Origin: Cymodocea nodosa
Lineage: Eukaryota > Streptophyta > Magnoliopsida > Alismatales > Cymodoceaceae
NCBI GenBank assembly: GCA_036874045.1
Contig: CM072335.1
Coordinates: 15,520,001-15,584,000, forward strand
DNA: 64,000 bases
Direction: 5' to 3'
Part shown: piece after piece, positions 1,039 to 39,844 of the stretch
Numbering within the stretch: the first letter of the stretch is position 1
Layout of the letters: each line of letters starts with the position of its first letter
Made by a program: the position numbers and the translations under genes
The notes under the pieces: generated by a model
Told to the model about the DNA's origin: nothing
Databases searched by the model: none
What the model saw: the letters and a program-made list of their open reading frames with translations, nothing else

Positions 1039-1122
1039 GATATTGAGAAGCTAAGTAATTGTGAGTGCTGTTTTGTTTTAATAGCAAGAGGAGTGTGTGT
1101 GTTTTCTTCTTTAATTGAGAAT

Positions 1123-3520: not shown

Positions 3521-5485
3521 TGTTTAGAATGAAAAAGTGCATAATATTAACGGTTAAATGATGGTTAATTACATAATATTTAGCTTTTCATGCAAGAATT
3601 AAGCCATTATGTTATAATTGCACTATTAGATGCTTTAATAAAAGAATCTGCATAATTCCAGGGAATTAATGTCAATTTAGTACATTTCTGAACTGTCGGT
3701 ACATTACAGGTTGTGAAATTCTTAAGTATCCGAATTTTCTGTTATTTTGGAGAGTTATGTTTAATATACTGGACAGTTATGTTTTAAATGCTTAAAGAAT
3801 ATTTTATTATTTCATGGATTACACGTGTTGAAACTACAATGCATGACTTAAGTGGATTTTCAAAAGGTTATCTGTAACTATCTAAAATGCATTTGAGCAT
3901 CGGATAGTTAGGTTCGTAAGTGTCCGAAATATTTGAACTTGTTAAGATAAAATTATGCACGTATTGAATTTAAATGCTTTAGTATATCACGTGAGATGCA
4001 CATGTTTAACTCGTTAAGTTAGCATAACTATACGTGTTGAGTTACATAACTACACACTAAGGTTACGCGTTATGTTAGCGGCTTATTTCTTTATTGCACG
4101 TGTTTTATAGTTAAATCAACAAAGTAAGTCCATTGAGTTATCTGTAACTCCACAGACTATTTATTTTCTAATATGCCACTATAGCGGTTACAGAAACAGG
4201 ACATTCGAAGGAAAACCACGATTGCACGTATCACGCAGGAAATCACTTGTGGAAGGAAGAAAAAATCACCATCGTTGATATGAACGAAGGAAATCCAATT
4301 GATCATCGAAGCAAAAGCAGTTACTACTAAGAAATATAAAAGACAAGGAGAGAAAAAAAAACCAAAGGGGGTGGCCAATGTGTGTGTAGAGGAGGAGGAC
4401 CGTGCTAACTACAGGCAACATCGAAAGTTCCCGAAAGTTCCACACTACCATCACCACCACCACCATAATCACCAACCATCGGAAATCTGTGAGGATACTT
4501 TCCTGATGTTGGGTCAATTCCGAGCCAAACACGGTGCCTGACAACCACTATAAGGAGTGATCGCGTCGCGGGAAGGGAAACCATTTTCACCAAGCACTGA
4601 CTCATATCTCAAGAGATCGTAAAGCTTCTAGCCTTGGTTTCGGGTTGATGCTAGTATGCTGAAGAGGAGATCAACTTGCAATTTTGGACTCGCGATTCTA
4701 TAGGGAGAGGAGACAGAATTGTAAGTGGTTAAATTTTCAGTGGTGTAATTATGTCGCATGTAGTGACGAAAGTTTTTACTGTCAATAGAGATTAATTTTA
4801 CATTTCACCTTTCACCCATTTTCATGATCAGATAAAAACAAAAATACCAAAACCAACTTTTATGTGTTTATAGTTAGTATTTGAGTGTTGTATTGTTTGT
4901 TTTGTATCGTGATTATTGTTATCATTGTCAGTGTTTGGAATGTTTCATATTTGTTTAAATTTAGAAAATAGAAAATAGTTTTACAGTTTATTGAAATCAA
5001 ATTGTTCTTGATACTTAAATATTTTAATGCTTACTGTTTGAAATATCTAAATGTTAGTGTTGTTGAATGATAAATTTAATATTAACTAGCATTAAAGAGC
5101 TTAATTGATGTTATTTACAATCTGTGGAACCGCTCAATGGTTGACCGAATTCCTTTGTAAATAGCAGTATTAATCTGGATAGACAACTTCGTCGAGTTAT
5201 TTCAATTTCACGAGGTTAGTTCGTTGAGTTAGCTATAACTCCATGAAGTGCTTACTGAAGATATAAATTTCATTATTAAAATTAGAATAGTACACAATTC
5301 TTCCTCAATTCTCTATGGGATCGACCTGTACTTGCACATAAATACAATATACACTGTGCACTTGCAGTTAAAATGCAAATTGGAATTAATATGTAATTTG
5401 TGTGAAAGATGGTTTGTTGACTTCTAAAAAGGAATTAATGATAAGCATAAAGATAAATTAACTAAGTTACAAACAGAAGTTAACA
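3521..5485 (+). repeat. 5' LTR of element B
   Basis: It begins TGTTTAGAATG, ends GTTAACA, and is 1965 bp long, the same size as the 3' copy. The left part (U3) has hairpin-forming motifs: AACTATC/GGATAGTT pairs at about 3870-3920 and GTCCATTGAGTTA...TAACTCCACAGAC at about 4127-4156. AGCGGTTAC (4183-4191), a CCACGATTGCACGT block and a TATA box follow. The right part holds a GC-richer leader and a 5' splice-site-like GTAAGT (4721-4726). TTGTTGAATG and other AT-rich sequence continue to the end. Confidence 0.9.
4335..4342 (+). promoter_or_regulatory. TATA box of the 5' LTR promoter of B
   Basis: TATAAAAG occurs at the equivalent position of every family LTR long enough to show it: 3400-3407, 18156-18163, 26378-26385, reverse strand 43403-43410 and 49791-49798, and a TATAAAAT variant from 23134. 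Upstream are ACGT-containing sequences (GCACGTATCACG). The transcription start is presumably about 30 bases downstream, but this is not shown by the sequence alone. Confidence 0.65.
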
Positions 5486-5492
5486 AGTTTTT

Positions 5493-5510
5493 TGACGTCG
5501 TTGCTAGGGA
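5493..5510 (+). other. Primer-binding site of element B, tRNA-Asp type
   Basis: TGACGTCGTTGCTAGGGA begins seven bases after the LTR terminus and is a degraded version of the tRNA-Asp-complementary site. After a 37-base leader the sequence jumps straight to the middle of protease at about 5548, so the start of the zinc-knuckle ORF and the LTR-proximal leader are deleted in this copy. Confidence 0.75.
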
Positions 5511-5530
5511 ATTTGAGTAGCTAAGCAACT

Positions 5531-8500
5531 GTGAGTATTGTTTTGTCATGCACCATAGGAAATACCATTCTAGAAAGAACTTTAATAGACATAGGTGCTA
5601 GTATAAATGTTATGCTAAGTGATATATTTGCATCCTTAGGATTAGAAGGCTTAACTCCTACTAGTACGGTTATTCAATTAGCTGATAGAAGTATAAGATA
5701 CCCTAGAGGAAAAATAGAGAATGTCTTAATTAAAATTAGAAACTTTATATATCCTATTGATATTGTAATTTTGGATTCCCAACAAATTAAGCATAAAAAT
5801 AATGATACATCTTTAATTTTGGAAAGACCATTTTTAACAACATCAAGGGTAGTTATAAATTGTACAAGTGGAGTAATGAAGTTATCATATGGCAATGAGG
5901 ATACTCAATTAAACATTTTCAAACCAGAAAAGTTCGAGTTAAAAACGTCCTTACATACCATTGACTTTTTAGAGGATGAAGGAGATATGCTAGATGATGT
6001 CATTCAAGAAGAATTAAATAGGCAACTCAATTTTGAAATTTTAGAGGAAAGTGAAAGCAAAAATATAGAAGGAGATCAAGAAGAAACTAAATTAGAAAAT
6101 GAGGATGTTCAATTAGGAGCTCTTGCTTCTAATGGGCAACATTTAGAATTAAAACCTTTACCTCCTGAATTAACTTTTATATTTCTAAAAGAAAAATGAA
6201 TATGTCCAATCATTATTGCTTCAAATTTAAAAGAGGATCAAATAGCTAAATTAAAAGATGTAGTAAAAACGTATAAAGAAGTAATAGGATGGACTATGAC
6301 TGATATAAAAGGGTTAAGTCCAACTTTATGCTGTCACCATATATATTTAGAAGAAAATGCTAGACTTGTTAGAATTCCTGAGAGGAGATTAAATCCAAAC
6401 CTTAAAGAAGTAGTCAGGAAGAAATAGTGAAATGGTTAGATAATGACATAATTTATCTGATTTCTGATAACTCATGGGTTAGTCCAATTTATGTAGTTCC
6501 CAAGAAATCAGGATTAATAGTAATTAGGAATGAAAGTCAGGACTTGATACCTACTAGAATTCAGTCAGGCTAGAGAGTGTGTATAGACTATAGAAAGCTG
6601 AATGTTGTAACTAGGAAAGATCATTTTCCCTTACCTTTTATAGATCAAATGCTAGAGAAATTAGCAGGGCAAGAATATTTTTGTTTCCTAGACGAGTATT
6701 CAAGATATAACCAAGTTCTAGTAGCATTAGAGGATCAAGAGAAAACAACTTTCACCTGTCCTAATGGAACTTATGCTTTTAAGAGAATGCCATTTAGATT
6801 ATGCAATGCACCAGCCACCTTTTAAAGGTGTATGCAGGGCATATTCACTAGAATGACTGAAGATTTTTTAGAAATATTTATGGATGATTTTACTATTTAT
6901 GGAACTTCATATGAAGTGTGTTTCAACAATTTAGACCTAGTATTAAAACGTTGTGTGGACAAAAATCTAGTTCTAAATTGGGAAAAATGTCACTTCATGG
7001 TTAATCAAGGAATCGCCTTGGGTCATGTTGTTTCAAAGAAGGGGTTGGAAGTAGATAAATCTAAAATAGAAGTAATTTCTAATCTACCAGAACCTAAATC
7101 AGCAAAAGATATTAGATCATTTCTAGGACATGTTGGATTTTATAGAAGACTTATTAAAGATTTTAGCAAAATAGCTAGACCTTTAACTAATCTATTAAAA
7201 GATGTCCCATTCAACTTTGATAAAAATTGCAAAGAAGCATTTTTCAAGCTTAAAATTAGCTTAATTTCAACTCCTATAATACAAGCACCTGATTGGAGCC
7301 ATCCATTTGAATTAATGTGTGATGCATCTGATTTTGTTGTAGGAGCAATGTTGGGACAGAAGATAGAAAAATCTCCTAGAGTGATTCATTATGCAAGCAA
7401 AACCTTAAATGATGTTCAAATTAATTACACAACTACTGAAAAAGAGTTGTTAGCTGTTGTGTTTGCCTTAGAGAAGTTTAGATCATATCTAATCCGAGCT
7501 AAAGTAATAGTATACACGGATCATTCAGCTTTAAAACATCTAATTGCAAAGAAAGAGACTAAACCTAGATTGATCCGATGGATATTATTATTACAAGAAT
7601 TCGATCTAGAAGTTGAAGATAAAAAAGGTTGTGAGAATGTAGTAGCAGATCATTTATCAAGATTACAAATAGAAAAATCAAATATTGAAATTAAGGATAA
7701 TTTTCTTGATGAACAGTTAATGGCCATCAACACAATGTCTTGGTATGCAAACATAGTTAATTACTTAGTTACTAGTTTAATACCTAAGGATTGGAATAGA
7801 TAGGATAAGAAATTATTTTTCTCAAGAGTAAAATATTACTATTGGGAAGACCCATACTTATTTAAGAAATTTCCTAATCTAGTTTTAAGGAGGTGTGTTC
7901 CAGAAACTAAATATCAGAGCATATTGTCTTTCTGTCATGACCAAGCATGTGGAGGGCATTTTGGTTCGGAGAAAACTGCTGCAAAAATTCTACAATGTGG
8001 ATTTTATTGGCCAACACTATTCAAAGATACTCATAAATATTGCTTAAGTTGTTTAAGATGTCAATAAATAAAAAGAATATCAAAGAGGAATATGATGCCT
8101 CTTAATCCTATTGTTGAGGTGGAAATATTTGATGTGTAGGGAATAGATTTTATGAGTCCATTTCCTATATCTTATCAATTTAATTATATATTGTTGGGGG
8201 TGGATTATGTATCTAAATGGATAGAAGCTATTCCTACAAAAACTAATGACAACAAAGTGGTAATATATTTTATAAGAACCAATATAATTGCTAAATTTGG
8301 AATACCTAAAGCTATTATCAGTGATAGAGGAACTCATTTCTGTAATAGAAGTTTTGAAGCCTTAATGAAGAAATATGGAGTGAACCACAAAATTGCAACA
8401 TCATATCATCCGCAAACAAGTGGACAAGTAGAAAGCACCAATAAACAAATTAAGTTAATCTTAGAAAAAGTAGTAAATCCTACTAGAACAGATTGGGCTA

Positions 8501-9039
8501 ATAGATTGATAGATGCACTTTGGGCTTATAGAACTGCTTATAAGACAAGCTTAGGTATGCCACCTTTTAGGCTAGTATACGAAAAAAGTTGTCATTTACC
8601 AGCTGAAATTGAACATAAAGCTTATTAGGCATTAAAAACTCTAAACACTAATTTAAATCAAGCTGTTGAAAATAGGAAATTACAATTGATTGAATTAGAA
8701 GAATTTAGGAATGAAGCTTAGTCAAAAACTGTAAGAGAAAAAGAGAAAATGAACTTCTAGCATGATAAGAAAATTATTCCAAAAACCTTTAAAATAGGAC
8801 AAGAAGTATATCTTTATATGACTAGACTCCATAACCATCTAGGAAAATTAAGATCTAGATGGGCAGGACCTTACATAGTTCGAAATATTTATCCCTATGG
8901 AGTTATTGAGATTGAAAATCCTAAAAATTAGAATATATTTAAAGTAAATGGACAAAGACTTAGACCTATTTTGAAGATACCAAAAAGTTCTTTTGGAATT
9001 GTAGAAGTAAGAGTAGAGGACTACTCAAGCTTTACTTAG
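5531..9039 (+). pseudogene. pol: Athila-type pol: protease, RT, RNase H, integrase (element B)
   Basis: Domains in order: retropepsin with DIGASINVML near the start; reverse transcriptase from about 6560 with MCIDYRKLN, PFGLCNAPATF-like text (Gly changed to Arg here) and the catalytic FMDDF at about 6877; RNase H with [23 protein letters not shown] and YTDHSALK; integrase from 7804 with a zinc motif (HDQACGGH...CLSCLRC) and a DDE core (GIDFMSP, SDRGTHF, E in QVESTNKQ). The integrase C-terminal part runs to 9039. RT is closest to Athila-group elements by motif. Damage: one base missing near 6420, and stops at 6571, 6824, 7801, 8066, 8138, 8626, 8719, 8758 and 8929, mostly TGG or CAG turned to TAG or TAA. 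Apart from the one frameshift the frame stays open over 3.5 kb. Confidence 0.92.
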
Positions 9040-9692: not shown

Positions 9693-11937
9693 ATGAGGAA
9701 GATGACACCTAAGTTCTGGGAAAAGGCAGTAGACACTTCAAAATTTCTTAAAGACTCGGAGGAATGGCACACGAGGCAGAAAATCAGGAATACGACAAGA
9801 GAAAAAGAACTACAAAAGGTAGAATCTGAAATTTTCAACTAGAGAAGAGTTTTAGTAGATTTGGGTATACAAATACCTTAAATAATGGAAACAAGAATAA
9901 AGGTTGCTAGGGAAATTGTTGTACACAAAGAGAGAAAAATCAGGCCAAACAATGAAGTTCCTAGAATTAATCCAACGTAAGTCCCGGCTCTGGTTCAAAA
10001 GACGAATAGGTAGATGAGCTCAAAGGGCGATCTGGGAGTAAGAAAGGAAAGAAAATGAAGAAGAGAAAACTGAAGGACAAGAGGAGCCGACTGCTGAAAG
10101 ACCTGTTCCTGAGGAACAGTAGTCAAGACCTTCAAATCCACTTCCTAAACCATTAGAAAGGGTGGTAGTTATGGGGCCTTCAAATGAAGAAGAATTAAGA
10201 GAATTTGAAGAACTAGTTCGAGTTGGGAAAAACCAAGGAAAATCAGAAGATTTGGTAGTGGCTAAAGCACACCTAGTGTTTGATGCACTTTACAAAAAGA
10301 AGTCTACAGAAAAGTTGAAAGCCCAATATAAAATCAAAGTGGAACAACATCAAGAAGCTATTGCCAAACCTACTGCAAAAGGAGATGAAGCTAGTCCTTC
10401 GAGACCAGTAATTATTGAAAAAGTTAAACATGAAGAGCCAGTACCTGTGGTTCAAAGGAGTGAAGAGCCTATTTTTGTGGATTTAATTTCAGACGAGGAA
10501 GAAGAAGACCAAACACAATTAATGAGAAAAAAGAAAGGAAAGGAGATAGTGTTTGAATATCAAAAGGAGATTAAATCTGGAAGACAAATGTCAGTAGGGC
10601 CTATAGAGCCAAATTTTGTAAACCTGCTATCCGATTCTGAAGAGGAGCGGGAGCAGCAGCAGAAAGAGCAAAGAGAAGAAGAAAAACAAGCTGAAACTAG
10701 TATGCAGCCTATACAAATAGAAGAAACAGAAATTAGGGCAGAAACTGATTTGCCCGGAACCCCATCCCAATCTGCCACAGAATCAGAAAGAACAGTGACA
10801 ATGCAGATTGGTAGTTAGCAGGAAGAAGAAGAAGAAAAAAATGAACAAGAAGTTGAACAAGTATATATGGAAAGAGAAGACTCAACAGATTCCACTGAAG
10901 AGAAAGAAAATCTTCAGCAATTTATGGAAAGAATTAAAGGCAGAGTGGAGAATTCTGCCGGCTCACCACCACAGACAAAAGCAAAGGCAAAAATGTCAGA
11001 ATTTGTGGAGCATTTTCAGCAAGTACAAGTTTAGCATTTGGAAGAGGAAGTTCAAGAACAAACCCCTTAGGAGCAACAAATGCATATTCTTGATCCTTCT
11101 GAAGCAACAGTTTTAAATGAAGTACATTTTCGGAGTCAAGAAGCTTATGACAAATACCAAGAGATTAGGGGTTATACTATCATTTACAGTAGACCAGTAA
11201 ATTGGGACAAAATGCAAGAAATCAAAGAATTATTTGAATTCCAAGGTCTACTGAAGTTTATTTCTCAAGAAAGAGGGTATGTAGTATATGAGAATCTAGT
11301 GCCCTACTTTTATGCAAACTTAAGAGAAGAAGGAGGATTAATTTCCAATGTGGAGGAAGCTAATGTACAAATAACACTAGAGCTTCTCCACAACATTTTA
11401 GGATTGAAAAATGAAGGGAAAGAAATTTTGGAAAGCACAACTGTTGTTGAGTGGATAGAAGAGGAAATCAAGGATTGTTTAGCTATCAATCATGGTGTGT
11501 CGTTATTAAATAGACTAAAGCAGTTAAATGGTACAGCACACATGATAGCAAACATTCTAATTAAGAATGTCTACTAACAACAAGGCCATGATATAGAACT
11601 GAGTCAATTTGTAAAGTGGGTCACACATGTAGTTGTAAATAGAATTCCAATAAATTGGTCTGCAGTTTTTATCTCCAAGTTGAGAATAGTGAAGAAGAAA
11701 TTGTTTTATGGAGATCTAATTCCACTACTGATGGTGAATTGTATCAATTTCACTAAATGGGCATCCAAAAGGATCAGATCAAGAACCATTTCAATGAAAG
11801 AGTACAGAAATTATGTAGCTGCAGAGATTACTGAACCTTCTAGAGGAATTACAAGAACTATAGAAAGGATTAACCAATTAGAGTAACAAGTAGAAAAACT
11901 CTAGAAGGAAGTAGATGAACTTAGGAGAAGAGATTAA
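9693..11937 (+). pseudogene. Putative plant transposon protein ORF (element B)
   Basis: From ATG 9693 about 750 codons can be followed. The N-terminal part shifts frame before 10162. The middle is acidic and Glu/Lys/Gln-rich (10162-11079). The C-terminal third (11080-11937) resembles the 'putative plant transposon protein' domain found in plant Ty3/gypsy ORFs of unknown function (PF20167-like, from memory of motif style): a YENLVPYFYANL stretch, ITLELLHNILGL, then RLKQLNGTAHMIANILI. The end (RINQLE...LRRRD) looks like a short coiled coil. In-frame stops at 10816, 11032, 11068, 11575 and 11884 are mainly TAG or TAA at Gln-like positions. The ORF sits in the env-like position after pol. Domain identity should be tested by profile search. 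Confidence 0.65.
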
Positions 11938-12902: not shown

Positions 12903-14250
12903 ATGAGCACATGGACTCATTCTTCTAGCACTAAACAATTAGTAAGAACACCTACCTAGGAGTATTCAACACAGAAGCGTATTGAAACATTTTCTGAATT
13001 GGACTTTAACGAAATCCTTAGGGGTGTAGCAAACCTTTCTTTAAAAGAGAACGAAGATATGGCTGCTCTAGTAGAAAAACCATTAGGGGAAATTCTATAT
13101 CCTGAATTAGTTGATGAACCTTCATGTATTCGATTGCCAAACTTTGAGGGAGATAGGTTTGAACTGAAATCTAATTATATTAGTCAATTACCACATTTTC
13201 ATGGATTAGAAAGAGAGGATGCCTATTATTTCCTTAGAGAATTTAATGAAGTTTGTTAGATGATGAAAATGCCGAATGAGTATAGATGCTATTAAACTTA
13301 GATATATCCCTTTTGCTTTAAAAGACACAGCTAAGAGATGGTTATATACTCTATCGCCTGATTCAATTTCTACATGGACTGAATTTTGCTCTATTTTTCT
13401 GGAAAAATATTATCCAACACATCAAATGATTAAAAAGAAAAAGGAAATACTAATATGTAGCCAAAAATAGGGAGAATCATTCTGGAAATATTTTGAAAGA
13501 TTTAAAGATTTACTAACTCAATGTCTGCATCATGCAATGAGTAAAGCACAATTAATAGGTGTAATTTATGAAGGCATAGATGTTTCAACAAAATCTTTAT
13601 TAGAATCTACTTGTTAGAATGGATTTTTAAAATTGTGTAGTGAAGAAGCATGGGCATACTTAGAAAATTTTGCAAAAAGAACTGCACAATGGGAGAATTC
13701 AGCTAAAGCTATTGCAGATAAAAGAATATTACCAAGGGGAATGCATGAAATAGATCCAAGCACTATGCTTGAAGTGAAATTAACTGAATTAACAAAGAAA
13801 ATAGAAGAGTTATCATTATATCAAAAACTAGCAAAAAAGAATGCAAGCATTAACAATCTAGATATTATTTATGCTAGAAGCTAGAAAGATAACTTTGGAA
13901 ATTCATATAACCCTAATTGGAGAAATCACTCGAATTTATCTTGGAGAAACAACAATTTCCATGGAGGAGAAAATATTAATGACAAGAATATAAGTTATGA
14001 AGCATTAATTAAACAAGGATCCAGAATAGAGAAATTAGAAAAGATAATTCAGCAATTAAACAATCGTCTAGATTTTGTATTTGGAAATGTTGCAATTCAA
14101 AATCAAAATATAAATAGAAATATACCCCCTAGATAGAAAGAATCAATAGAAGTTAGACCTATTGGAGGATTGCCAATGCAAGCAGTACCTAACCCTATTA
14201 ACAAAACTATTAATGAAATTGATACCTCCTCTAGGAGGGTAGCTGAATGA
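12903..14250 (+). pseudogene. gag: Capsid-type gag ORF in 3' position (element B)
   Basis: It starts at ATG 12903 (MSTWTHSSSTK), the start shared with C and D, about 45 bases after the predicted donor. The central part is the Ty3/gypsy retrotransposon gag domain as in Athila: LPHFHGLEREDAYYFLREFNEVC, a RYIPFALKDTAKRWLY stretch, and WTEFCSIFLEKYYP followed by a Lys-rich run. The C-terminal part has NPNWRNHSNLSWR-like text, known from Athila gag after the capsid, and a coiled coil (IEKLEKIIQQLNNRL). There is no zinc knuckle in this ORF. Damage: TAG at 12957 and 13257, a 2-base loss near 13276, TAG at 13468 that is also present in C and D, and further stops near 13615, 13882 and 14134. Confidence 0.85.
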
Positions 14251-14454: not shown

Positions 14455-15594
14455 ATGGAATTCTTAAAATTACCACTGGATGCATAAAGGGAAGTACTGA
14501 GTAACTTATCAGCTAAAGATCTATGTAGATTATGTTGTGTATCAAAGGATATTAAAGACTGTGTTAGAGAAAAATATTTTCATGGACTACAAGCTGCAAA
14601 AATGACTAAGATTAGAGATAGATTTTTATGGAAGTCATTTAATCGTAGTTCAATCAGCTATGAATATCTGAATATGGATGAAACTACTGGAATTCCACCC
14701 AATGCATTAGAAGGAATAGATCATATTATGGGGATGAATGAAGGATTAATTATATACAGAACCAAACCAAGGTATGCAATTTTGTTACCTGATATTTTGA
14801 TTAGAAATCCTCTCACCAGAGAAGAATGGAATATAAGAAGGCCTAATAGATATGAAGTACCAATTGAAAATTTTGGGTCAGCTTTAATATTTTCTGATAA
14901 AAATTCTACCATTCCTGAAAAATTATATTATTGGAGACCTATTGGAAATTGGGATGAAGATTTATGCTTAAGTGTGTATAATTTTCTGAATAGATCTTGG
15001 ACTGAAAACACTATGATATATCTAGGACAGAAATCCTTAATTAACAACATATATGTCATACATGATGGATATATATATCTAGTCACAGATATATCAGTTA
15101 CATTTAGATCCGATTTATACATAATAAGCATAGATAGTTATGATAATGACTATATAGAAATTTTGCCTATACCAAGTGATATAGCTAAACCACCATCTAC
15201 AGAATATGATAAAATTCAATTAGGAATGTGGTATAATGAATATGATGATCCTACTCTATGTTTGATAAGATGATGGGATGAATTGAAGAAATTTCAAATA
15301 TGGATTATAAAAGATCTAAATGAATGGAAGTGGGAAGAGGAATATATTGAAATAGATGTAGAAATAGAAACAGCCACACTATCTTGGAACAAACGAGAAT
15401 CTCTTTTTGCATTTAATTTCATTAATAGAAATAGACTTATATTTAGTATTGATAACATACTACAAGTTTACAAATTAAAAAGGAAAATAGACTACATTGA
15501 AATAGAATTGATAGCAAGAAGGATTATGCCAAAAAATTTTGCTTCGACTGTCACGTTTATTCCATTTGTTATTACTTTTCAGTCATGTTCTTAA
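14455..15594 (+). pseudogene. F-box protein ORF carried by element B
   Basis: 380 codons including stop. Residues about 5-40 form an F-box (LPLDA.REVLSNL.AKDLCRLCCVSK), the motif that binds SKP1 in SCF ubiquitin ligases. Residues about 100-130 (ILPDILIRNPLTREEWNI) match the NPxT signature common in plant F-box-associated domains. The rest, rich in aromatic residues with EKLYYWRP and IYLVTDIS blocks, would fit a beta-propeller or DUF295-like substrate domain (weak). There are only two stops, at 14485 and 15271 (TGG to TGA), and no frameshift. Length is exactly the same in C and D. Whether the ORF ever acts in the host ubiquitin pathway is inference; capture of a host F-box gene by the element is the simplest explanation. 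Confidence 0.82.
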
Positions 15595-15695
15595 AATATG
15601 ATTTCTGTGTTTTTAATATTATGTGTAGTCTGTATTTATTTTTAGAAAAAAAAAATAAACAAAAATATCAATCCAGTTTGTTGGTATCTGTTCTA

Positions 15696-17221: not shown

Positions 17222-17330
17222 TAATCTAATTTATTATTCTGAAGAAAAGCGAAATGAAAAATTAAATCTAGCACTTTAGAAAGACCAATTAGTTAGATCT
17301 TAGTTTGCTAAGGGACTAGCAAAATTTAAG

Positions 17331-17341
17331 TATGGGGGAAG
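17331..17341 (+). other. Polypurine tract of element B
   Basis: TATGGGGGAAG directly abuts the TGTTTAG start of the 3' LTR, as required for plus-strand priming in LTR retrotransposons. The equivalent in A is at 22087-22097, and in D at 35381-35395 on the reverse strand. Confidence 0.85.
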
Positions 17342-19304
17342 TGTTTAGAATGAAAAATTGCATAATATTAATGGTTAAATGATGGTTAATTGCATAATAT
17401 TTAGCTTATCATGTGAGAATTAAGCCATTATGTTATAATTGCATTGTTAGATGCTTTAACAAAAGAATATGCATAATTTCAGGGAATTAATGTTAATTTA
17501 GTACATTTCTGAACTATCGATACATTGCAGGTTGTGAAATTCTTAAGTATCCAAATTTTCTTTTATTTTGAAGAGTTATGTTTAATGTACTGGACAGTTA
17601 TGTTTTAAATGCTTAAAGAATATTTTATTATTTCCTGGATTACACGTGTTGAAACTACAATGCATGACTTAAGTTGATTTTCGGAAGGTTATCTATAACT
17701 ATCCGAAATGCATCTGAGCATTGGATAGTTACGTTCATAAGTGTCTGAAATATTTGAACTTGTTAAGATAGAATTGTGCACGTATTGAATTTAAATGCTT
17801 TAGTATATCACGTGAGATGCACATGTTTAACTCGTTAAGTTAGCATAACTGTACGCGTTGAGTTACATGAATACACACTAAGGTAACGCATTATGTTAGC
17901 GGCTTATTTCTTTATTACACGTGTTTTATAGTTAAATCAACGAAGTAAGTCCGTTGAGTTATCTATAACTCCACGGACCATTTATTTTCTAATATGCCAC
18001 TATAGCGGTTACAGAAACAGGACATTCGAAGGAAAACCACGATTGCACGTATCACGTAGGAAATCGCTCGTGGAAGGAAGAAGAAATCACCATCGTTGAT
18101 ATGAATGAAGGAAATCCAATTGATCATCAAAGCAGAAGCAATTACTACTAAGAAATATAAAAGACAAGGAGAAAAAAAAAACCAAGGGAGTGGCTAGTGT
18201 GTGTGCAGAGGAGGAGGACCGTGCTAACTGCAGGCAGCATCGGAAGTTCCCTGAAGTTCCACACTACCATCACCACCACCACCATAATCACCAACCATCG
18301 GAGGTCTGTGAGGATACTTTCTAGATGTCGGGTCGATTCCGAGCCAAACACGATGTCTAATAACCATTGTGAGGAGTGATCGCGTTGCGGGAAGGGAAGC
18401 CATTTTCACCAAGCACCGACTCATATCTCAGGAGATCGTAAAGCTTCTAGCCTTGGTTTCGGGTTGATACTAGTATGCTGAAGAGGAGATCAACTTGCAA
18501 TTCTGGACTCGCGATTCTATAGGGAGAGGAGACAGAATTGTAAGTGGTTAAATTTTCAATGGTGTAATCGCGTCGCATGTAGTGACAGAAGTTTTTACTA
18601 TCAATAGAGATTACTTTTACATTTCACCTTTCACCCATTTTCATGATCAGATAAAAACAAAAATACCAGAAACAACTTATCTATGTTGAGAGTTAGTATT
18701 TGAGTGTTGTATTGTTTGTTTTGTATCGTGATTATTGTTATCATTGTTAGTGTTTGGAATGTTTCTTGTTTGTTTAAATTTAGAAAATAGAAAATAGTTT
18801 TACAATTTATTGAAATCAAATTGTTCCTGATACGTAAAGATTTTAATGATTACTGTTTGAAATATCTGAATGTTAGTGTTGCTGAATAATAAATTTAATA
18901 TTAACTAGCATTAAAGAGCTTAATTGATGTTATTTACAATCTATGGAACCGCTCAATGGTTGACCGAATTCCTTTGTAAATAGTAGTATTAATCTGGATA
19001 GACAACTTTGTTGAGTTACTTTAATTTCACGAGGTTAGTTCGTTGAGTTAGCTATAACTCCACGAAGTGCTTACTGAAGATATAAATTTCATTATTAAAA
19101 ACAGAACAGTACACAATTCTTCCTCAATTCTCTATGGGATCGACTTGTACTTGCACACAAGTACAATATACACTATGCACTTGCAGTTAAAATACAAATT
19201 GGAATTAATATGTAATTTGTGTGAAAGATGGTTTGTTGACTTCTAAAAAGGAATTAATGATAAGCATAAAGATAAATTAACTAAGTTACAAACAGAAGTT
19301 AACA
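17342..19304 (+). repeat. 3' LTR of element B
   Basis: TGTTTAG...GTTAACA, 1963 bp, colinear with 3521-5485. It shows the U3 hairpin GTCCGTTGAGTTA (17949-17961) pairing with TAACTCCACGGAC (17966-17978), the TATA box 18156-18163, and GTAAGT at 18540. A U5 inverted repeat of the same class lies at about 19035-19070. Unexpectedly it is followed by a good PBS (19312-19329). Confidence 0.88.
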
Positions 19305-19370
19305 AGTTTTCTGGCGCCATTGCCGGGGAACTAAATAAGTTCTCTGGTGCCGCCAAAAAAATTCCAATCA
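19305..19370 (+). other. PBS-containing tail after the 3' LTR of B
   Basis: AGTTTTC, then TGGCGCCATTGCCGGGGA (19312-19329), the best-preserved PBS in the plus-strand copies. A second PBS-like start TGGTGCCGCC follows at 19345-19354, and then ATTCCAATCA. The tail lies between the LTR terminus and the ATCTG flank. A PBS does not belong after a 3' LTR. It may reflect insertion of a tandem LTR-internal-LTR form or recombination with another 5' LTR. Confidence 0.7.
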
Positions 19371-22097: not shown

Positions 22098-24284
22098 TGT
22101 TTAGAATGAAAAAGTGCATAATATTAACAGTTAAATGATAGTTAATTACATAATATTTAGCTTATCATATGAGAATTAAGCCATTATGTTATAATTGCAC
22201 TATTATATGCTTTAATGAAAGAATCTGCATAATTTCAGGAAATTAGTGTTAATTAAGTATATTTTTGAACTGTTAGTAAGTTACAAGCTTTTTAAATTCC
22301 TAAGTATTTGAATTATTTGTTATTTCGAAGAGTTACATTTTAAGTACCAGACAATTATGTTTTAAATGCTTAAAGAATATTTTATTATTTCCTAGAATAC
22401 ATGTGTTGAAACATTAATGCATGACTTAAGTGAATGTTTGGTAAGTTATCTATTAACTATCCAAAATGCATTTGAGCATCGGATAGTTAGGTTTGCAAGT
22501 ATCTCAAAATATATTTTTATCATAAAAGTTACTAAGGACACGTGTTGTGATCTGAAAACTTGATTTAAGTGTGGTTTTATAGTATTAAGCATGATCTATT
22601 TTATTTGCATATATTTATATCATGTACAGGTGCACAGTAACAACTCGTTGAGTTACAGGTTTAAAGGTATAAAAAGATCACGTGAGAACTCATTGAGTTA
22701 GTGAGTAAAAACTATAAGTTGTATATCTGAACTTATTAAGTTAGAATTATGCACGTGTTAAATTTAAATGCTTTATTATGTCACGTGAACTACACATGTA
22801 TAACTCGTTAAGTTAGCATAACTATACACGTTGAGTTACTTGAATATACATTAAGGTAACATGTTGTGTTAGTAACTTATAAGTTACTTTATTGCACGTG
22901 TTTTATAGTTAAATCAACGAAGTAAGTCCGTTGAGTTACACTAACTCCATGGATCATTTATTTTCTAATATACCATTGTAGTAGTTGCTGAAATAGGAAA
23001 TTCTAAGGAAAACCATTTTTGCACATATCACACAGGAATTCACTCATGGAATGAAGAAGAAATCACCATCGTTGATTTGAAGGAAGGAAATCCAACCGAT
23101 CAATTAAGTAGAAGTAGTTATTACAAAAAGAAATATAAAATAAGAGGAGAAAGACGAAGAAGTGTGTGTAGGTGGAGAACCACGCTAACTACAGGAAGCA
23201 TCGGAAGTTCCCTGAAGCTCCACACCACCACCAAAATCACCAACCATCGGAGGCCTATGTGGATACTTTCTAAATGTCGGGTCGATTCTGAGCCAAACAC
23301 AATGACTAACAACCACTATGAGGAGTGATCGCGTTGTAGGAAGGGAAGCCATTTTCACTAAGCACTGACTCATATCTTAGGAGATCGTAAAGCTTCTAGC
23401 CCTGATTTCAAGTTGATGCCAGTATGCTGAAGAGGAGATCATCTTACAATTCTTGATTTGTGATTCTATAGGGAGAGGAGGCAAGATTGTAAGTGATTAA
23501 GTTTCAGTAGTGTAATCGCGTCGCATGTGGTGACAGAAGTTTTTACTATCGATAGAGATTTTTACATTTCACCTTTCGCTCATCTTCAAGAACATATCAA
23601 AACAAAAATACTAAAAACAACAAATTATCTGTGTTTACATTTAGTATTAAAGTGTTATATTGTTTGTTTTGTATCATGATTAATGTTATCATTGTCAGTA
23701 TTGTGAATGTTTTATGTTTATTTGATTTAGAAAATAAAAAATAGTTTTATTGATTATTGAAATTGATTCATTCTAGATACTTAAAGATTTTAATGGTTAC
23801 TATTTGAAATATCTGAATGTTAGTGTTGCTTAATGACAAATCTAATATTAACTAACATTAAAGAACTTAATTGATGTTATTTACATTCTATGGAACCGCC
23901 CAATGGTTGGCCGAATTCCTCTATAAATAGCAGTATTTAACTAGAAAGGTAAACTCCTAGAGTTAACTTAAGTCCACGAGGTTAGTCCGTTGAGTTAACC
24001 ATAACTCCACAAACTAAGTCTGTTGTGTTAACTATAACTCAATAGAGTGCTTAATTGAACACATATAAACTCCAATATAAAAATTAAAACAGTACACAAT
24101 TCTTACCCAATCTTTATGGGATCGACTTGTACTTGCACACAAATACAATATACACTGTTCACTTGCAGTTAAAATACAAATTGGATTTAACATCTAATTT
24201 TTGTGAAAGGTTTTTTGTTTACTTCTAAAAGTAATTATTGATTTAAGCATAAAAACAAATCAAAGAAGTTTTCACAAACCGAAC
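22098..24284 (+). repeat. 3' LTR of element A
   Basis: Begins TGTTTAGAATG after a PPT. It contains the AACTATCC/GGATAGTT repeats (about 22455-22490), GTTGAGTTA-type motifs at 22640-22945, TATAAAAT from 23134, and the leader with GTAAGT at 23490. The last bases are degraded: after AAAAACAAATCA the usual GTTAACA or CCAAACA end is not clear, and F-box sequence starts at about 24285. Confidence 0.78.
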
Positions 24285-24690
24285 AACCACCGTTTGTAGA
24301 ATATGATAAAATTCAATTAGGAATGCGGTATAATGAATATGATGATCTTACTTTATGTCTGATAAGATGGTGGGATGAATTGATGAAATTTCAAATATGA
24401 ATTATGAAAGACCTAAATGAATGGAAGTGGGAAGAGGAATATATTGAAATATATGTAGGAATAGAAACAACTACATTATCTTGGAAAGAAGAGGATCCCT
24501 TTCTACATTTCAATTCATTAATGGTAATACACTGATATTTAGTATTGATAACATACTGCAAGTTTACAATTTAAAAAAGAGAGTGGACTGCATTAAAACA
24601 TAATTAATAGTAAGAAGAATTATGCTTGAAAAGTTTGCTTGGACTTACACGTTTTTCCATTTGTCACTACTTTTCAATCATGTTCTTAAA
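24285..24690 (+). pseudogene. Fourth F-box copy, C-terminal fragment
   Basis: Colinear with the last 130 codons of the F-box ORFs (EYDKIQLGMRYNEYDD, RWWDELMKF, NEWKWEEEYIEI). It starts at the LTR end and lacks the F-box motif. Stops and frameshifts are present (for example TGA in FQI.IMKD and a base loss near 24490). It ends with the TTTTCAATCATGTTCTTAA tail seen in the other copies. Confidence 0.8.
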
Positions 24691-25064
24691 CTGTGATTTT
24701 GTACTTTTAATGTTGTGTGTACTCTACATTTATTTTTAGAAAAAAAATAAAATATCAATCCAATTTGTTGGTATTTGTTCTAGGAAACCAACTGGCTTGC
24801 TTGTGAGCCACCAAAGGCAAAGGAGCATGGGTTCCACACAAGACACTAATTTAATAATTTATGTTTTGTTGTTAGATGTTATTTTATTATATATTCTACT
24901 TTTATGTATGAATGAAAAGTTTTTCAGAATCAAAAGTCGGAAGATATTGAAGGAGATACAAAAGAAGAATTGATTACTTATCTTGAATTTACATTTAAAC
25001 TCAGTTGTGGAGTTATTCATTAACTCAACGAATTAAGTTCGTTGAGTTAGGTGCTAAGTCAATG
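24691..25064 (+). other. Truncated 3' non-coding region after the F-box fragment
   Basis: Contains the 64-base box (24783-24846) and a degraded form of the small exon, here missing the CAAGGTATGT donor. The family sequence stops at GGTGCTAAGTCAATG, where reverse-strand copia sequence begins. Confidence 0.7.
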
Positions 25065-30629: not shown

Positions 30630-31936
30630 ATGAGCACATGGACCCGTTCTCCTAGCACTAAACGATTAGTAAGAACCCCTACTCAAGAATATTCAACATT
30701 GAGGCATACTGGAAAATTTTTTGAATTGAACTTTAACGAAATTCTTTGGGGTCTATCTAACCATTCTTTAAAAGAGAACGTAGAGATGGCTGCTCCAGTA
30801 GAAAAACCATTAGGAGAGATTTTGTGCCAAACTTTGAGGGAGAAAGGTTTGAACAGAAATCTAATTATATTAGTCAATTGCCACATTTTCGTGGATTAGA
30901 AAGAGAGGATGCCTATTATTTCCTTAGAGAATTTAACGAAGTTTGTCAAATGATGAAAATGTCGAACATGAGTATAAATGCTATTAAACTTAGATATATC
31001 CCTTTTTCTTTAAAAGACACAGCTAAGAGATGGTTATATACTCTATCGCCAGATTCAATTTCAACATGGATTGAATTTTGCTTTGTTTTTTTGGAAAAAT
31101 ATTATCCAACATATCAAACAATTAAAAAGAAGAAAGAAATATTAATGTGTAGCCAAAAATAGGGTGAATCATTCTAGAAATATTTTGAAAGATTTAAAGA
31201 TTTACTGACTCAATGTCCACATCATGCAATTAGTAAAGCATAATTAATAGGTATAATTTATGAAGGCATAGATGTTTCAACGAAATCTTTATTAGAATCT
31301 ACTTGTCAAAATAGATTTTTAAAATTATGTAGTGAAGAAGCATGGGCATATTTAGAAAATTTTGCAAAAAGAACTGCACAGTGGGAAAATTCGGCTAAAG
31401 CTATTGCAGATAAAAGAATATTGCCAAGAGGAATGCATGAAATAGATTCAAGTACTATGCTTGAGGTGAAATTAAATGAATTAACAAAGAAAATAGAAGA
31501 GTTATCATTAAATCAAAAGCTAGCAGAAAAGAATGCAAACATAAATGGCTTAGATATTATTTATGCTAGAAACCAGAGAGATAACTTGGGAAATGCTTAT
31601 CATCCTAATTGGAGAAATCACCCAAATTTATCTTGGAGAAAAAACAATTTTCAGGGAGGAGAAAATATAAATGAAAAGAACATAAGTTATGAAGTATTAC
31701 TTGAACAAGAAGCTAGAATAGAGAAATTGGAAAAGATAATCCAACAAATAAACAATCGTTTAGAATTTATATTTGGAAATGCTGCAATTCAAAATCAGAA
31801 TAGAAATATATCACTTAGACAGAAGGAACCAATGGAAGTTAGACCTACTGGAGGATTGACAATACAAGCTATACCTAATCCTGTCAATAGAACGGTTAAT
31901 GAAATTGATACCTCTTCTAGGAGGGCAGCTAAATGA
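30630..31936 (+). pseudogene. gag: Capsid-type gag ORF in 3' position (element C)
   Basis: Starts MSTWTRSPSTKR. A deletion of about 43 bases at 30824 removes the ELVDEPSCIRLP block and shifts frame. The capsid core is otherwise well kept: QLPHFRGLEREDAYYFLREFNEVCQ, RYIPFSLKDTAKRWLY, FLEKYYP. The C-terminal part has HPNWRNHPNLSWRKN and a coiled coil (IEKLEKIIQQINNRLEF). Stops include TAG 31160-31162, also found in B and D, and others near 31174 and 31240. It ends TGA at 31936. Confidence 0.85.
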
Positions 31937-32129: not shown

Positions 32130-33269
32130 ATGGAATTGATGCAATTACCGTTGGATGCACTAAGGGAAGTACTAGGTAACTTGTCAGCTAAAGATCAGTG
32201 CAGGCTGTGTTGTGTATCAAAGGAAATTAAAGAATGTATTGAAGAAAAATATTTTCAAGGACTACAAGCTGCAAAAATGACTAAGATTAGAGATGGATTC
32301 ATATGGAGGTCATTTAATCGTAGTTCAAATACCCATGAATATCTGGCTATGGAAGAAACTACTGGAATTCCACCCAATGCATTAGATGGAATAAATTATA
32401 TTATGGGGATAGATGAAGAATTAATCATATACAAGACGAGACCAACGTATGCAAGTTTAATATTACCTGATATTTTGCTATGAAATCCTATAATAGGAGA
32501 AGAATGGAATATAGGAAGACCTAATAGATTTGAAGCACCAACAGTAAATTGTGGGTCAACTTTAATATTTTCTGTTAAAAATTCTGCAATTCTTGAAAAA
32601 TTATATTATTGGAGACCTACAAGAAATTGGGGTGAAGATTTACGCTTAAGTGTGTATAATTTTCTAAACAGATCTTGGAATGAAAACATTATAATATATC
32701 TAGGACAGAAATCATTAATTAACCAAACACATGTCATACTTGATGGATATATCTATTTAGTCATAGAGATATCAAAAGCATATAGATCTGATTTATACAT
32801 AGTGAGCATAGATAGTTATGAAGATTATATAGAAATTTTACCTATACCGAGTGAAATAGCTAAACCATCATCTGCAGAATTTAATGAAATTCAAATAGGA
32901 ATGTGGTATAATGAAGAAGATGATCCTACTTTATGTCTAATAAGATAGTGGGATGAACTAATGAAATTTCAAATATGGATTATGGAAGACATGAATGAAT
33001 GGAAGTGGGAAAAGGAGTATATTGAAATAGATGTAGAAATAGAAGCTGCTACATTACCCTAGAACCAAAAAGGATCCCTTTTTGCATTACATATCATTAA
33101 TGGTAATACACTTGTATTTGGAATTTATAATATATTGCATGTTTACAAATTAAGAAGGAACAAGAATTGCATTAAAACAGAATTAATAGCAAGAAGAACT
33201 ATGCCTAAAAAGTTTGCTTGGACTGATACATTTATTCCATTTGTTTCTACTTTTCAATCATGTTCTTAA
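32130..33269 (+). pseudogene. F-box protein ORF carried by element C
   Basis: 380 codons from ATG to TAA with no indel compared with B or D. The F-box lies at residues about 6-40 (LPLDALREVLGNLSAKDQCRLCCVSK). Then come ILPDILL.NPIIGEEWNI and a long C-terminal part with EKLYYWRP, NFLNRSW, GYIYLVIEIS and NEWKWE. Three stops: TGA 32481, TAG 32946 (TGG in D; the same Trp codon is TGA in B) and TAG 33061 (TGG in D). Different stop changes at one shared Trp codon show that B and C were damaged independently, after an intact F-box ORF had been amplified. Confidence 0.82.
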
Positions 33270-37172: not shown

Positions 37173-38312
37173 TTAAGAACATGATTGAAAAGTAGAAACA
37201 AATGGAATAAATGTATCAGTCCAAGCAAACTTTTTAGGCATAGTTCTCTTTGCTATTAATTCTGTTTTAATGCAGTCCTTATTCCTTCTTAATTTGTAAA
37301 CATGCAATATATTATAAATTCCAAATACAAGTGTATTACCATTAATGATATGTAATGCAGAAAGGGATCCTTTTTGGTTCCAAGGTAATGTAGCTGTTTC
37401 TATTTCTACATCTATTTCAATGTACTCCTCTTCCCACTTCCATTCATTCATGTCTTCCATAATCCATATTTGAAATTTCATCAGTTCATCCCACCATCTT
37501 ATCAGACATAAAGTAGGTTCATCTTTTTCATTATACCACATTCCTATTTGAATTTCATTAAATTCTACAGATGGTGGTTTAGCTATTTCACTCGGTACAA
37601 GTAAAATTTCTATATAATCTTCATAACTATCTATGCTCACTATGTATAAATCAGATCTAAATGCTATTGATATCTATGTGACTTAATAGATATATCCATC
37701 AAGTATGACATGTGTTTGGTTAATTAATGATTTTTGTCCTAGATATATTATAATGTTTTCATTCCAAGATCTATTCAAAAAATTATACACACTTAAGCAT
37801 AAATCTTCACCCCAATTTCCTATAGGTCTCTAATAAAATAATTTTTCAGGAATTGCAAAATTTTTTTCAGAAAATATTAAAGCTGACCCATAATTTTCAG
37901 TTGGTGCTTCAAATATATTAGGTCTTCCGATATTCCATTCTTCTCCTGTTATAGGATTTCGTATCAAAATATCAAGTAATATTAAACTTACATACCTTGG
38001 TCTCGTCTTATATATGATTAATCCTTCATCTATCCCCATAATATAATTTATTCCTTCTAATGCATTGGGTGGAATTACAGTAGTTTCTTCCATAGCCAGA
38101 TATTCATGGGTATTTGAACTACGATTAAATGACCTCCATATGAATCCATCTCTAATCTTAGTCATTTTTACAGCTTGTAGTCCCTGAAAATATTTTTCTT
38201 CAATACAGTCTTTAATTTCCTTTGATACACAACACAGCCTACACAGATCTTTAGCTAACAAGTTACTTAATACTTCCCTTAGTGCATCCAACGGTAATTG
38301 CATCAATTCCAT
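37173..38312 (-). pseudogene. F-box protein ORF carried by element D
   Basis: 380 codons, the same length as B and C, starting at MELMQLPLD. F-box at residues about 6-40 (LPLDALREVLSNLLAKDLCRLCCVSK); ILIRNPITGEEWNI; then the aromatic-rich C-terminal part. The last 155 codons, including RWWDELMKFQIW and NEWKWEEEYIEIDVEI, are uninterrupted. Three stops: TAG at about 37830 (Trp in B and C) and two close together at about 37680. Upstream at 38322 an acceptor TTATACAG precedes the ATG by nine bases. It is the best-kept C-terminal half of the three copies. Confidence 0.83.
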
Positions 38313-38503: not shown

Positions 38504-39844
38504 TCATTCAGCTGCCCTCCTAGAAGAGGTATCAATTTCATTAACTGTTCTATTGACAGGATTAGGTATAGCTTGTATTGGCAATCCTCTAGTAGGTCTA
38601 ACTTCCATTGGTTCCTTCTGTCTAAGTGATATATTTCTATTCTAATTTTGAAATGCAGCATTTCCAAATATAAATTCTAAACGATTATTTTCTTGTTGGA
38701 TTATGTTTTCTAATTTCTCTATTCTAGCTCATTATTCAATTAATACTTCATAACTTATGTTCTTCTCATTTATATTTTCTCCTCCCTGGAAATTGTTGTT
38801 TCTCCAAGATAAATTGTTGTTTCTCCAATTAGGATGATAAGAATTTCCCAAGTTATCTCTCTGGTTTCTAGCATAAATAATATCTAAGTCATTTATGTTT
38901 GTATTCTTTTCTGCTAGCTTTTGATTTAATGATAACTCTTCTATTTTCTTTGTTAATTCATTTAATTTCACCTCAAGCATAGTATTGGAATCTATTTCAT
39001 GCATTCCTTTTGGCAATATTGTTTTATCTGCAATAGCTTCAACCGAATTTTCCCACTGTGCAGTTCATTTTGCAAAATTTTCTAAATATACCCATGCTTC
39101 TTTACTACATAATTTTAAAAATCCATTTTGACAAGTAGATTCTAATAAAGATTTCGTTGAAACATCTATGCCTTCATAAATTATACCTATTAATTGTGTT
39201 TTACTCATTGCATGATGTGGACATTGAGTCAGTAAATCTATAAATCTTTCAAAATATTTCCAAAATGATTCACCCTATTTTTGTCTACACATTAATCTTT
39301 CTTTTTTCTTTTTAATCGTTTGATGGGTTAGATAATATTTTTCCAGAAAAACAGAGCAAAATTCAGTCCATGTAGAAATTGAATCAGGCGATAGAGTATA
39401 TAACCATCTATTAGCTGTGTCTTTTAAAGAAAAAGGGATATATCTAAGTTTAATAGCATCTATACTCATGTTCGGCATTTTCATCATTTGACAAACTTCG
39501 TTAAATTCTCTAAGGAAATAATAGGCATCCTCTCTTTCAAATCCATGAAAATGTGGCAATTGACTAATATAATTAGATTTCAGTTCAAACCTATCTCCCT
39601 CAAAGTTTGGCAATCGAATACATGAAGGTTCATCAATTAATTCAGGATATAGAATTTCTCCTAATGGTTTTTCTACTGGAGCAGTCATCTCTACGTTCTC
39701 TTTTAAAGAAAGGTTAGCTACACCCTAAAGAACTTCGTTAAAGTTCAGTTCAGAAAATTTTTCAGTACTCCGCTACAATGAAAATTCCTAGGTAGGTGTT
39801 CTTACTAATCGTTTAGTGCTTAGAGAACGAGTCCATGCGCTCAT
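38504..39844 (-). pseudogene. gag: Capsid-type gag ORF in 3' position (element D)
   Basis: Starts MSAWTRSLSTKR-like at 39844. The capsid core spans about 39690-39275 without interruption: PELIDEPSCIRLPNFEGDRF, QLPHFHGFEREDAYYFLREF, RYIPFSLKDTANRWLY, FLEKYYL. TAG at 39275-39277 is at the same codon as in B and C. The C-terminal part has YHPNWRNNNLSWRNN and a coiled coil. Other stops near 39790, 39725 and 38735; TGA end at 38504. Confidence 0.85.

What the first reader, a model, noticed from the sequence alone, without database searches (positions are those of the whole stretch)
14455..15594. Athila-like retrotransposon family carries an F-box gene
Seen: three copies (14455-15594, 32130-33269, 38312-37173) of a 380-codon ORF with an F-box motif and a plant F-box-associated NPxT signature, always between a capsid-type gag and the polypurine tract. 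All are exactly 1140 bp with no indels, while neighbouring ORFs in the same elements have frameshifts. Known: F-box proteins link SKP1/CUL1 to substrates, and some plant viral proteins use F-box mimicry to remove silencing factors. Inferred: the element captured a host F-box gene and amplified it, perhaps to remove a host restriction or silencing protein. This would be a retroelement-encoded ubiquitin-ligase adaptor.
Basis: partly seen in the sequence, partly recalled or inferred. Interest (0 to 1): 0.88.

Follow-up and report, generated by a model that had tools for sequence, protein, structure and literature searches.

The report
Plant retrotransposon carrying an F-box gene
A very abundant family of plant jumping genes carries, as a regular part of its own genome, a gene for an F-box protein, the kind of adaptor that plant cells use to mark chosen proteins for destruction, and selection appears to have kept that gene working while the family spread.

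Summary
The main observation holds. All three window copies carry an F-box (PF00646 above gathering score). Open copies elsewhere also match the plant F-box-associated model TIGR01640: 7 of 7, E 1.3e-8 to 1.8e-5, below its curated cutoff. The ORF belongs to an Athila-type Ty3/gypsy element. A 26-base F-box probe has 3,420 genome matches, a capsid probe 3,607, reversed controls 0. Of 12 copies picked by gag alone, 11 have the F-box at the expected place. RT and/or integrase pieces lie upstream in 5 of 6 loci. Private changes look neutral (omega 1.06); changes shared by 11 or more of 43 copies are 12 nonsynonymous to 20 synonymous (0.23), against 1.53 and 1.83 in the wrong frames. The split between the two subfamilies is less constrained (0.57-0.76). 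Corrections: 'no indels' is wrong; the polypurine tract lies 1.7 kb beyond the ORF; the capsid ORF lies 3' of integrase. I found no F-box retrotransposon in the papers searched. The SCF-adaptor role is inferred, its target unknown. Structure prediction never ran.

The parts
14455..15594 (+). F-box/FBA ORF, copy 1 (subfamily 1), 2 in-frame stops
   Evidence: PF00646 E 1.6e-6 on open piece 14488-15270; translation
32130..33269 (+). F-box/FBA ORF, copy 2 (subfamily 2), 3 in-frame stops
   Evidence: PF00646 E 1.4e-9 on 32130-32480
37173..38312 (-). F-box/FBA ORF, copy 3 (subfamily 2), 3 in-frame stops; in inverted duplication with copy 2
   Evidence: PF00646 E 7.3e-9 on 37833-38312
24285..24691 (+). 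truncated F-box ORF remnant (C-terminal part; end estimated from the alignment)
   Evidence: self-alignment; tblastn 24272-24367
3521..5485 (+). 5' LTR of the copy-1 element, TGTTTAG...GTTAACA
   Evidence: 3520-5511 is 93.5% identical to 17341-19330; ends; K2P 0.067
5493..5510 (+). decayed tRNA-Asp-type primer binding site
   Evidence: sequence; tRNA-Asp PBS of Athila relatives described in PMC1142308; the tRNA letters themselves are recalled
5525..6196 (+). aspartic protease region
   Evidence: PF13650 E 0.0014, below cutoff; the relative at 40422-41168 passes the cutoff, E 2.8e-5
6826..7800 (+). reverse transcriptase C-terminal part and RNase H
   Evidence: PF17917 E 1.5e-35, PF00078 E 1.7e-7
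8140..8625 (+). integrase core
   Evidence: PF00665 E 5.2e-13
10123..10815 (+). acidic ORF of unknown family, matched in 6 of 6 other loci
11071..11883 (+). ORF weakly like PF20167 (Athila 3' additional ORF)
   Evidence: PF20167 E 0.014 here and 4.9e-5 in L017, both below cutoff 45
13034..13467 (+). capsid (Retrotrans_gag) ORF of copy 1, frameshifted
   Evidence: tblastn of 30761-31159 in three frames
30761..31159 (+). capsid (Retrotrans_gag) ORF of copy 2
   Evidence: PF03732 E 2.5e-8
39278..39613 (-). capsid ORF of copy 3
   Evidence: tblastn
13552..14247 (+). gag C-terminal ORF of copy 1
   Evidence: tblastn
31244..31933 (+). gag C-terminal ORF of copy 2
   Evidence: only weak, below-cutoff family matches (relatives)
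38507..39193 (-). gag C-terminal ORF of copy 3
   Evidence: tblastn
17330..17341 (+). polypurine tract (read by eye)
   Evidence: sequence GTATGGGGGAAG next to LTR start
17342..19304 (+). 3' LTR of the copy-1 element
19312..19329 (+). second tRNA-Asp-type PBS a few bases after the 3' LTR: the LTR is shared with a further, partial element
   Evidence: sequence

Best explanation
An Athila-type Ty3/gypsy LTR retrotransposon captured a plant F-box/FBA gene, which became a fixed extra gene of a family with thousands of copies. Order, put together from several loci since no single intact element was read: LTR, PBS, zinc-knuckle ORF, protease, RT, RNase H, integrase, unknown ORF, PF20167-like ORF, capsid ORF, gag C-terminal ORF, F-box ORF, spacer, PPT, LTR. 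Shown: F-box and FBA homology, linkage and copy number (about 0.95 sure); selection on the ORF while the family spread (about 0.8). Inferred, about 0.45: the protein is made when the element is active, binds SKP1/ASK through its N-terminal F-box, and uses its FBA domain to hand a host protein that limits the element (a silencing or restriction factor) to the SCF ubiquitin ligase.
For: F-box: and open copies. FBA: TIGR01640 in 7 of 7. Copy number 3,420 vs capsid 3,607, reversed controls 0. Gag-picked loci with F-box: 11 of the 12 read, of 39 listed besides the window. Gene order in 6 other loci, RT and/or INT pieces in 5 of 6; 5' end of one F-box element. Selection: singletons 289N/68S omega 1.06; shared by 11 or more 12N/20S, omega 0.23, 0 of 20,000 simulations as low; frames +1 and +2 give 1.53 and 1.83 in that class. 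Distant open copies dN/dS 0.26-0.53. 7 of 57 copies fully open.
Against: Among variants carried by 8 or more of the 57 copies, those needing 2 tree steps or fewer are 55N/22S, while the S-rich ones are homoplasic (12N/11S at 3-4 steps, 33N/31S at 5 or more), so 'internal branch' is not cleanly resolved. Wrong-frame controls range from 0.74 to 1.83 over all classes, so of its values only the 0.23 stands clear of them. Differences fixed between subfamilies are weakly constrained (0.76, p 0.15; 0.57, p 0.003), weaker than the PF20167-like ORF (0.28) or gag C-terminal ORF (0.42). The F-box stretch is no more conserved than the rest (residues 1-42 0.88, other parts 0.89-0.91). No expression, binding or target data. 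No structure model.
Confidence: 0.6

Rival explanations
1. The F-box protein is a working SCF adaptor, but its target serves replication in another way: it turns over an element protein such as capsid or integrase, or a cell-cycle brake (as suggested for nanovirus Clink), not a silencing factor.
For: The ORF sits directly after the gag ORFs, and the two travel together (11 of 12; 3,607 vs 3,420). Clink is an F-box protein acting on RB (passages of PMC3588083).
Against: No target data either way. The weaker constraint between subfamilies would fit a changing target better than a fixed one, but this is only suggestive.
Confidence: 0.25
2. Passenger: a captured host gene that multiplied with the element and has no function for it.
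For: Most copies examined are broken: 50 of 57 are not fully open. Private changes are neutral. The subfamily split has omega up to 0.76, and the S-rich shared variants are homoplasic.
Against: Widely shared changes are strongly synonymous in the true frame only. Distant open copies give dN/dS 0.26-0.53. It is kept beside gag in 11 of 12 loci.
Confidence: 0.12
3. Decoy: the protein uses its FBA part to bind a host factor, or its F-box to sequester SKP1, without forming a working ligase.
For: The F-box is not the most conserved part. PF00646 scores are moderate, 28-38 bits.
Against: The F-box still passes Pfam's cutoff in 3 of 3 window copies and in 7 of 7 open copies.
Confidence: 0.1
4. Host F-box genes that merely lie among repeats, or an assembly artefact.
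For: Plant genomes hold large F-box families (general knowledge).
Against: Copies share mostly 91-96% identity over kilobases of flanking gag-pol, thousands of matches exist, and private changes are neutral.
Confidence: 0.02

Closest known systems
Athila lineage of Ty3/gypsy elements (Athila, Calypso, Diaspora)
   Same: Sense ORFs between integrase and 3' LTR; tRNA-Asp-type PBS a few bases after the LTR (PMC1142308 passages); a PF20167-like 3' ORF as reported for a sunflower Athila element (PMC11728184 passages); long LTRs
   Different: Carries an F-box/FBA gene; the capsid ORF lies 3' of integrase, and upstream of protease no capsid match was found, only a zinc-knuckle ORF and ORF sequence of no known family; no PF03078 hit; RT tree not made
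Phalaenopsis Ty3/gypsy elements with an AlkB-type m6A demethylase
   Same: A host-type gene fixed as an additional ORF in a large gypsy family; a role against host control is proposed (PMC9289625, abstract and section 12)
   Different: Different domain and activity (RNA demethylase, shown in vitro per its abstract); F-box does not occur in that paper's main text
Polerovirus P0 and nanovirus Clink
   Same: Virus-encoded F-box or F-box-like proteins that contact SKP1-type proteins and redirect SCF (PMC3588083 passages)
   Different: Infectious viruses, not retrotransposons; no homology tested or claimed. Here the protein has a plant FBA domain
Plant F-box/FBA proteins (TIGR01640 group)
   Same: N-terminal F-box and C-terminal FBA homology
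   Different: Encoded by a retrotransposon with thousands of genome matches; the closest host gene was not identified
Retand and other elements with 3' additional ORFs
   Same: Long region between pol and 3' LTR with extra ORFs (PMC11963269 abstract and section 11 part 1; PMC7264820 part 1 of 3)
   Different: In Retand mostly antisense with Transposase_28; none of the sense ORFs there encodes a known domain

Membership tests
F-box proteins | F-box domain, PF00646 above gathering score | tested here: met
   3 of 3 window copies and 7 of 7 open copies
F-box proteins | binds SKP1/ASK and joins an SCF ligase | not testable with these tools
   needs a binding assay
Plant F-box/FBA group | TIGR01640 F_box_assoc_1 above curated cutoff 37.9 | tested here: inconclusive
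   significant E in 7 of 7, but 24.2-34.5 bits; three span about residues 112-335, four only about 164-335
Plant F-box/FBA group | Pfam FBA domain | tested here: not met
   only PF08268 E 2.6 in one full-length copy
Ty3/gypsy LTR retrotransposon | LTRs with TG...CA ends, PBS, PPT | tested here: met
   no target-site duplication, as the 3' LTR runs into a further partial element
Ty3/gypsy LTR retrotransposon | order protease, RT, RNase H, integrase | tested here: met
Athila lineage | tRNA-Asp primer binding site near the LTR end | tested here: met
   19312-19329 read by eye against the recalled tRNA-Asp end; relatives per PMC1142308
Athila lineage | RT/INT clusters with Athila in a tree | not tested
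   no reference set at hand
Athila lineage | no archaeal-type extra RNase H (a Tat mark) | tested here: inconclusive
   no second RNase H hit in the pieces scanned; not every piece was scanned
Athila lineage | Athila ORF-1 PF03078 (reported in only 16% of Athila elements) | tested here: not met
   no hit in the pieces scanned; related PF20167 E 4.9e-5, below cutoff; frequency from PMC6317226

The most novel reading that the evidence does not exclude
A plant retrotransposon lineage has its own accessory gene in the retroviral sense: an F-box/FBA protein that loads a host restriction or silencing factor onto the SCF ligase, paired with a capsid ORF that has moved 3' of integrase. The weak constraint between the two subfamilies would reflect a shifting target in an arms race, and the gene would help explain the several thousand copies.
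Probability: 0.33. Interest if true: 0.9.

Novelty: new variant of a known kind. Interest (0 to 1): 0.74.

Why it matters
Whether the extra genes of plant LTR retrotransposons do anything is an open question. In one large survey only 21.4% of extra-ORF proteins matched any known domain (PMC6317226 passage). Here the extra gene has a readable likely activity (SCF adaptor), a huge family to study and a selection signal, so the question becomes directly testable: find the partner. If the target is a silencing factor, this would be a plant retrotransposon that disarms its host by protein degradation, as polerovirus P0 is thought to do and some retroviral accessory proteins do (recalled).

Tried and rejected
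Rejected: the A-rich run at 15644-15666 as polypurine tract, and with it an LTR start near 15679 that I first assumed; several LTR copies in the window begin at the TGTTTAG site (sequences; a variant). Rejected: 'the F-box is spared indels'. Rejected: host gene among repeats.

Led nowhere: the F-box protein against 5.8 billion proteins gave 1,438 word-sharing candidates and none at E 0.001 or better; I cannot say how many plant proteins that set holds. PDB by sequence: 0 matches for one open copy, one at E 0.7 for another. The host species was not identified. The host gene of origin was not found, since the whole-genome protein search filled up with element copies. An integrase copy count and a TIGR01640 genome search did not complete. 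Structure prediction was busy at all 16 attempts.

Limits of the samples: the 43 subfamily-1 copies come from best-match lists. The 12 fetched subfamily-2 copies were chosen by me from 40 listed (39 besides the window's own), all exactly 1,140 bp, so their lack of frameshifts means nothing. The 12 gag-picked loci are the first 12 of 39 besides the window; one of the 12 (L090) gave no F-box match. Five further gag hits coincide with F-box places listed; the other 22 were not looked at. The 26-base F-box probe was picked because all 57 copies hold it with at most 2 mismatches, so probe counts for different ORFs compare only roughly. About 45 of 146 hits show no stop in the 261-residue stretch (my count of the rows); these are the best-scoring ones. 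In one search the subfamily-2 side is only window copies 2 and 3 plus one locus whose F-box is read in part.

Full report
WHAT IS THERE. The window is part of a 374.6-Mb genome held as G000 (28 contigs); the window is 32% G+C. It is a nest of LTR retrotransposons. The three ORFs of the finding are at the stated coordinates, each 380 codons long and each broken by 2 or 3 stops. Open pieces of all three match the F-box, PF00646, above Pfam's gathering score. Seven fully open copies from other loci match it too, and all seven match TIGR01640, the F-box-associated domain, at E 1.3e-8 to 1.8e-5. Three of these matches span about residues 112-335, four only about 164-335, and all are below that model's curated cutoff. 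Pfam's own FBA models do not reach significance. The protein is therefore best read as a plant-type F-box/FBA protein, diverged.

THE ELEMENT. Around copy 1 the LTRs are 3521-5485 and 17342-19304, TGTTTAG...GTTAACA, 93.5% alike (K2P 0.067). At recalled plant rates of 7e-9 to 1.3e-8 per site and year this is about 2.6-4.8 million years, if the two are a true pair. A tRNA-Asp-type primer site follows the LTR, as described for Athila relatives (PMC1142308, passages); the tRNA letters are recalled. The polypurine tract is at 17330-17341, so a spacer of about 1.7 kb separates it from the F-box. Between the LTRs lie a protease-like ORF (below Pfam's cutoff in this copy), RT/RNase H and integrase. 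Then come an acidic ORF of no known family, an ORF weakly like PF20167, a Retrotrans_gag capsid ORF, a gag C-terminal ORF and the F-box. The same order was found at six other loci, with RT and/or integrase pieces upstream in five of the six; the flanks are mostly 91-96% alike over kilobases. In one of them I read the 5' end: LTR, primer site, a CCHC zinc-knuckle ORF, then the protease-side ORF, with no capsid match (E 1e-5) upstream of protease. So the capsid ORF lies 3' of integrase, next to the F-box. PF20167 has been reported in a sense 3' ORF of a sunflower Athila element (PMC11728184, passages), so that part is ordinary for Athila; the capsid position and the F-box are not. Copy 1's own element lacks the zinc-knuckle part (by alignment), and its 3' LTR is followed by a second primer site. 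It has recombined or been nested, and I found no target-site duplication.

HOW COMMON. A 26-base F-box probe with up to 2 mismatches has 3,420 matches (1,728 + 1,692; reversed control 0). A capsid probe has 3,607 (1,847 + 1,760; control 0). 3,420 copies of the 1,140-bp ORF would be about 1% of the genome (arithmetic). Best-hit searches score only a part: 146 protein hits covering nearly the whole query, and 40 DNA hits each for copy 1 and copy 2. To avoid choosing copies by the F-box itself, I took gag hits and read 111 bases at the predicted place in the first 12 of 39 besides the window. 11 of 12 carry the F-box in the right orientation. Five more gag hits coincide with listed F-box places; 22 were not looked at. 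The integrase count did not complete.

SELECTION. Copies fall into two subfamilies: 43 copies like copy 1, and 14 like copies 2 and 3, which are monophyletic with support 1.0. Copies 2 and 3 and the 12 fetched subfamily-2 copies differ from copy 1 by two in-frame 3-bp indels that cancel in length. Within subfamily 1, changes private to one copy are neutral: 289 nonsynonymous, 68 synonymous, omega 1.06 against a context-matched expectation. Changes shared by 11 or more copies are 12 to 20 (omega 0.23; none of 20,000 simulations as low; 0.17 with another expectation). The classes between are 0.82 (2-3 copies, p 0.15) and 0.70 (4-10, p 0.03). In the deepest class the other two frames give 1.53 and 1.83. 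Subfamily 2 shows the same trend (singletons 1.2; shared by 2-7, 0.59, p 0.025). The wrong-frame controls over all classes range from 0.74 to 1.83, and two singleton classes fall below 1 there at p 0.04-0.05, so's values only the 0.23 stands clear of that noise. Open distant copies give pairwise dN/dS 0.26-0.53, close ones within subfamily 2 0.53-0.88; choosing open copies biases this somewhat downward. Against a simple story: among variants carried by 8 or more of the 57 copies, those needing 2 steps or fewer on a FastTree tree are 55N/22S, and the synonymous-rich ones are homoplasic (12N/11S at 3-4 steps, 33N/31S at 5 or more). Internal branches are short (0.303 of 2.087), so either the tree is unresolved or the elements recombine. 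Recurrent mutation in dead copies should not favour synonymous sites, so I still read the excess as selection on replicating copies, at about 0.8; I had 0.9 before setting the control frames beside it. Fixed differences between subfamilies are weakly constrained: omega 0.76, p 0.15 with 43 vs 14 copies; 0.57, p 0.003 with 7 vs 3 loci. In the latter set the PF20167-like ORF gives 0.28 (2 loci on the subfamily-2 side) and the gag C-terminal ORF 0.42; capsid has only 3 fixed differences; singletons there give 0.63 to 0.84. The F-box residues are not more conserved than the rest (0.88 vs 0.89-0.91).

HOW IT MAY WORK. Shown: an F-box/FBA gene fixed in an LTR retrotransposon family, with a signal of purifying selection. 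Inferred: it is translated from element RNA, binds SKP1/ASK by its F-box, and recruits a target through the FBA part. A host factor limiting the element is my first choice of target (about 0.45). A cell-cycle or element protein is second, by analogy with nanovirus Clink; polerovirus P0 is the precedent for a silencing factor (PMC3588083, passages). Nothing here names the target.

WHAT IS KNOWN. A survey of 121 angiosperm genomes reports 15 uncommon domains in gypsy elements, PMD, G-patch, AIR1 and an AlkB-type demethylase among them (PMC9289625, abstract and section 12). F-box does not occur in its main text, but the text lists domains that pass a five-consensus filter; the full chart is in a supplement I did not see. 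F-box does not occur in the main text of the large lineage survey either (PMC6317226, find; its domain table is a supplement, not seen), nor in the counts listed for the reviews on additional ORFs and on Retand. A search for F-box with aORF and retrotransposon gave 0 papers. The other listings named no such element: 20 of 168 shown; 20 of 33; 6 of 6; 12 of 13; 15 of 196. One search on gag placed downstream of pol gave no such plant element in its listing (10 of 41 shown). A sunflower repeat database lists 10 F-box sequences among redundant gene families, without calling them retrotransposon genes (PMC3852528, passages). Most subscription-journal papers and all supplementary files lay outside these searches, so 'new' is bounded by that.

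VERDICT. Its details on indels and on the polypurine tract do not. I class it as a new variant of a known kind: an additional-ORF Athila-type element, with a domain and a gene order that I did not find in print in the searches named.

Noticed in passing
L080 and L011 (one element); window 13034-14247, 30761-31933: The capsid (Retrotrans_gag) ORF lies 3' of integrase, while a CCHC zinc-knuckle ORF sits between primer site and protease: a gag split around pol.
   Followed up: partly
window 19305-19370: The 3' LTR of the copy-1 element is followed by a second tRNA-Asp-type primer site and leader-like sequence; a similar stretch follows the LTR in L080 and the C16 locus, suggesting recombined or tandem elements.
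   Followed up: partly
window 30048-35008 and 35417-40429: Five-kb inverted duplication (92.7%) holding F-box copies 2 and 3 tail to tail.
   Followed up: partly
window 1-2855 and 40411-43242: 5' parts of related elements (LTR end, zinc-knuckle ORF, protease) in both orientations, 83% alike.
   Followed up: partly
window 46431-48653 and 53763-60612: Remains of Ty1/copia elements (RVT_2, copia-type gag, integrase pieces).
   Followed up: no
window 10123-10815: Acidic ORF of about 230 residues with no family match, found at the same place in 6 of 6 other loci.
   Followed up: no
F-box ORF, codons 97, 125, 160, 166, 182, 273-274, 311, 314: In-frame stops recur at the same codons in 4 to 9 copies, plausibly from C-to-T decay of methylated repeats; context not checked.
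   Followed up: no
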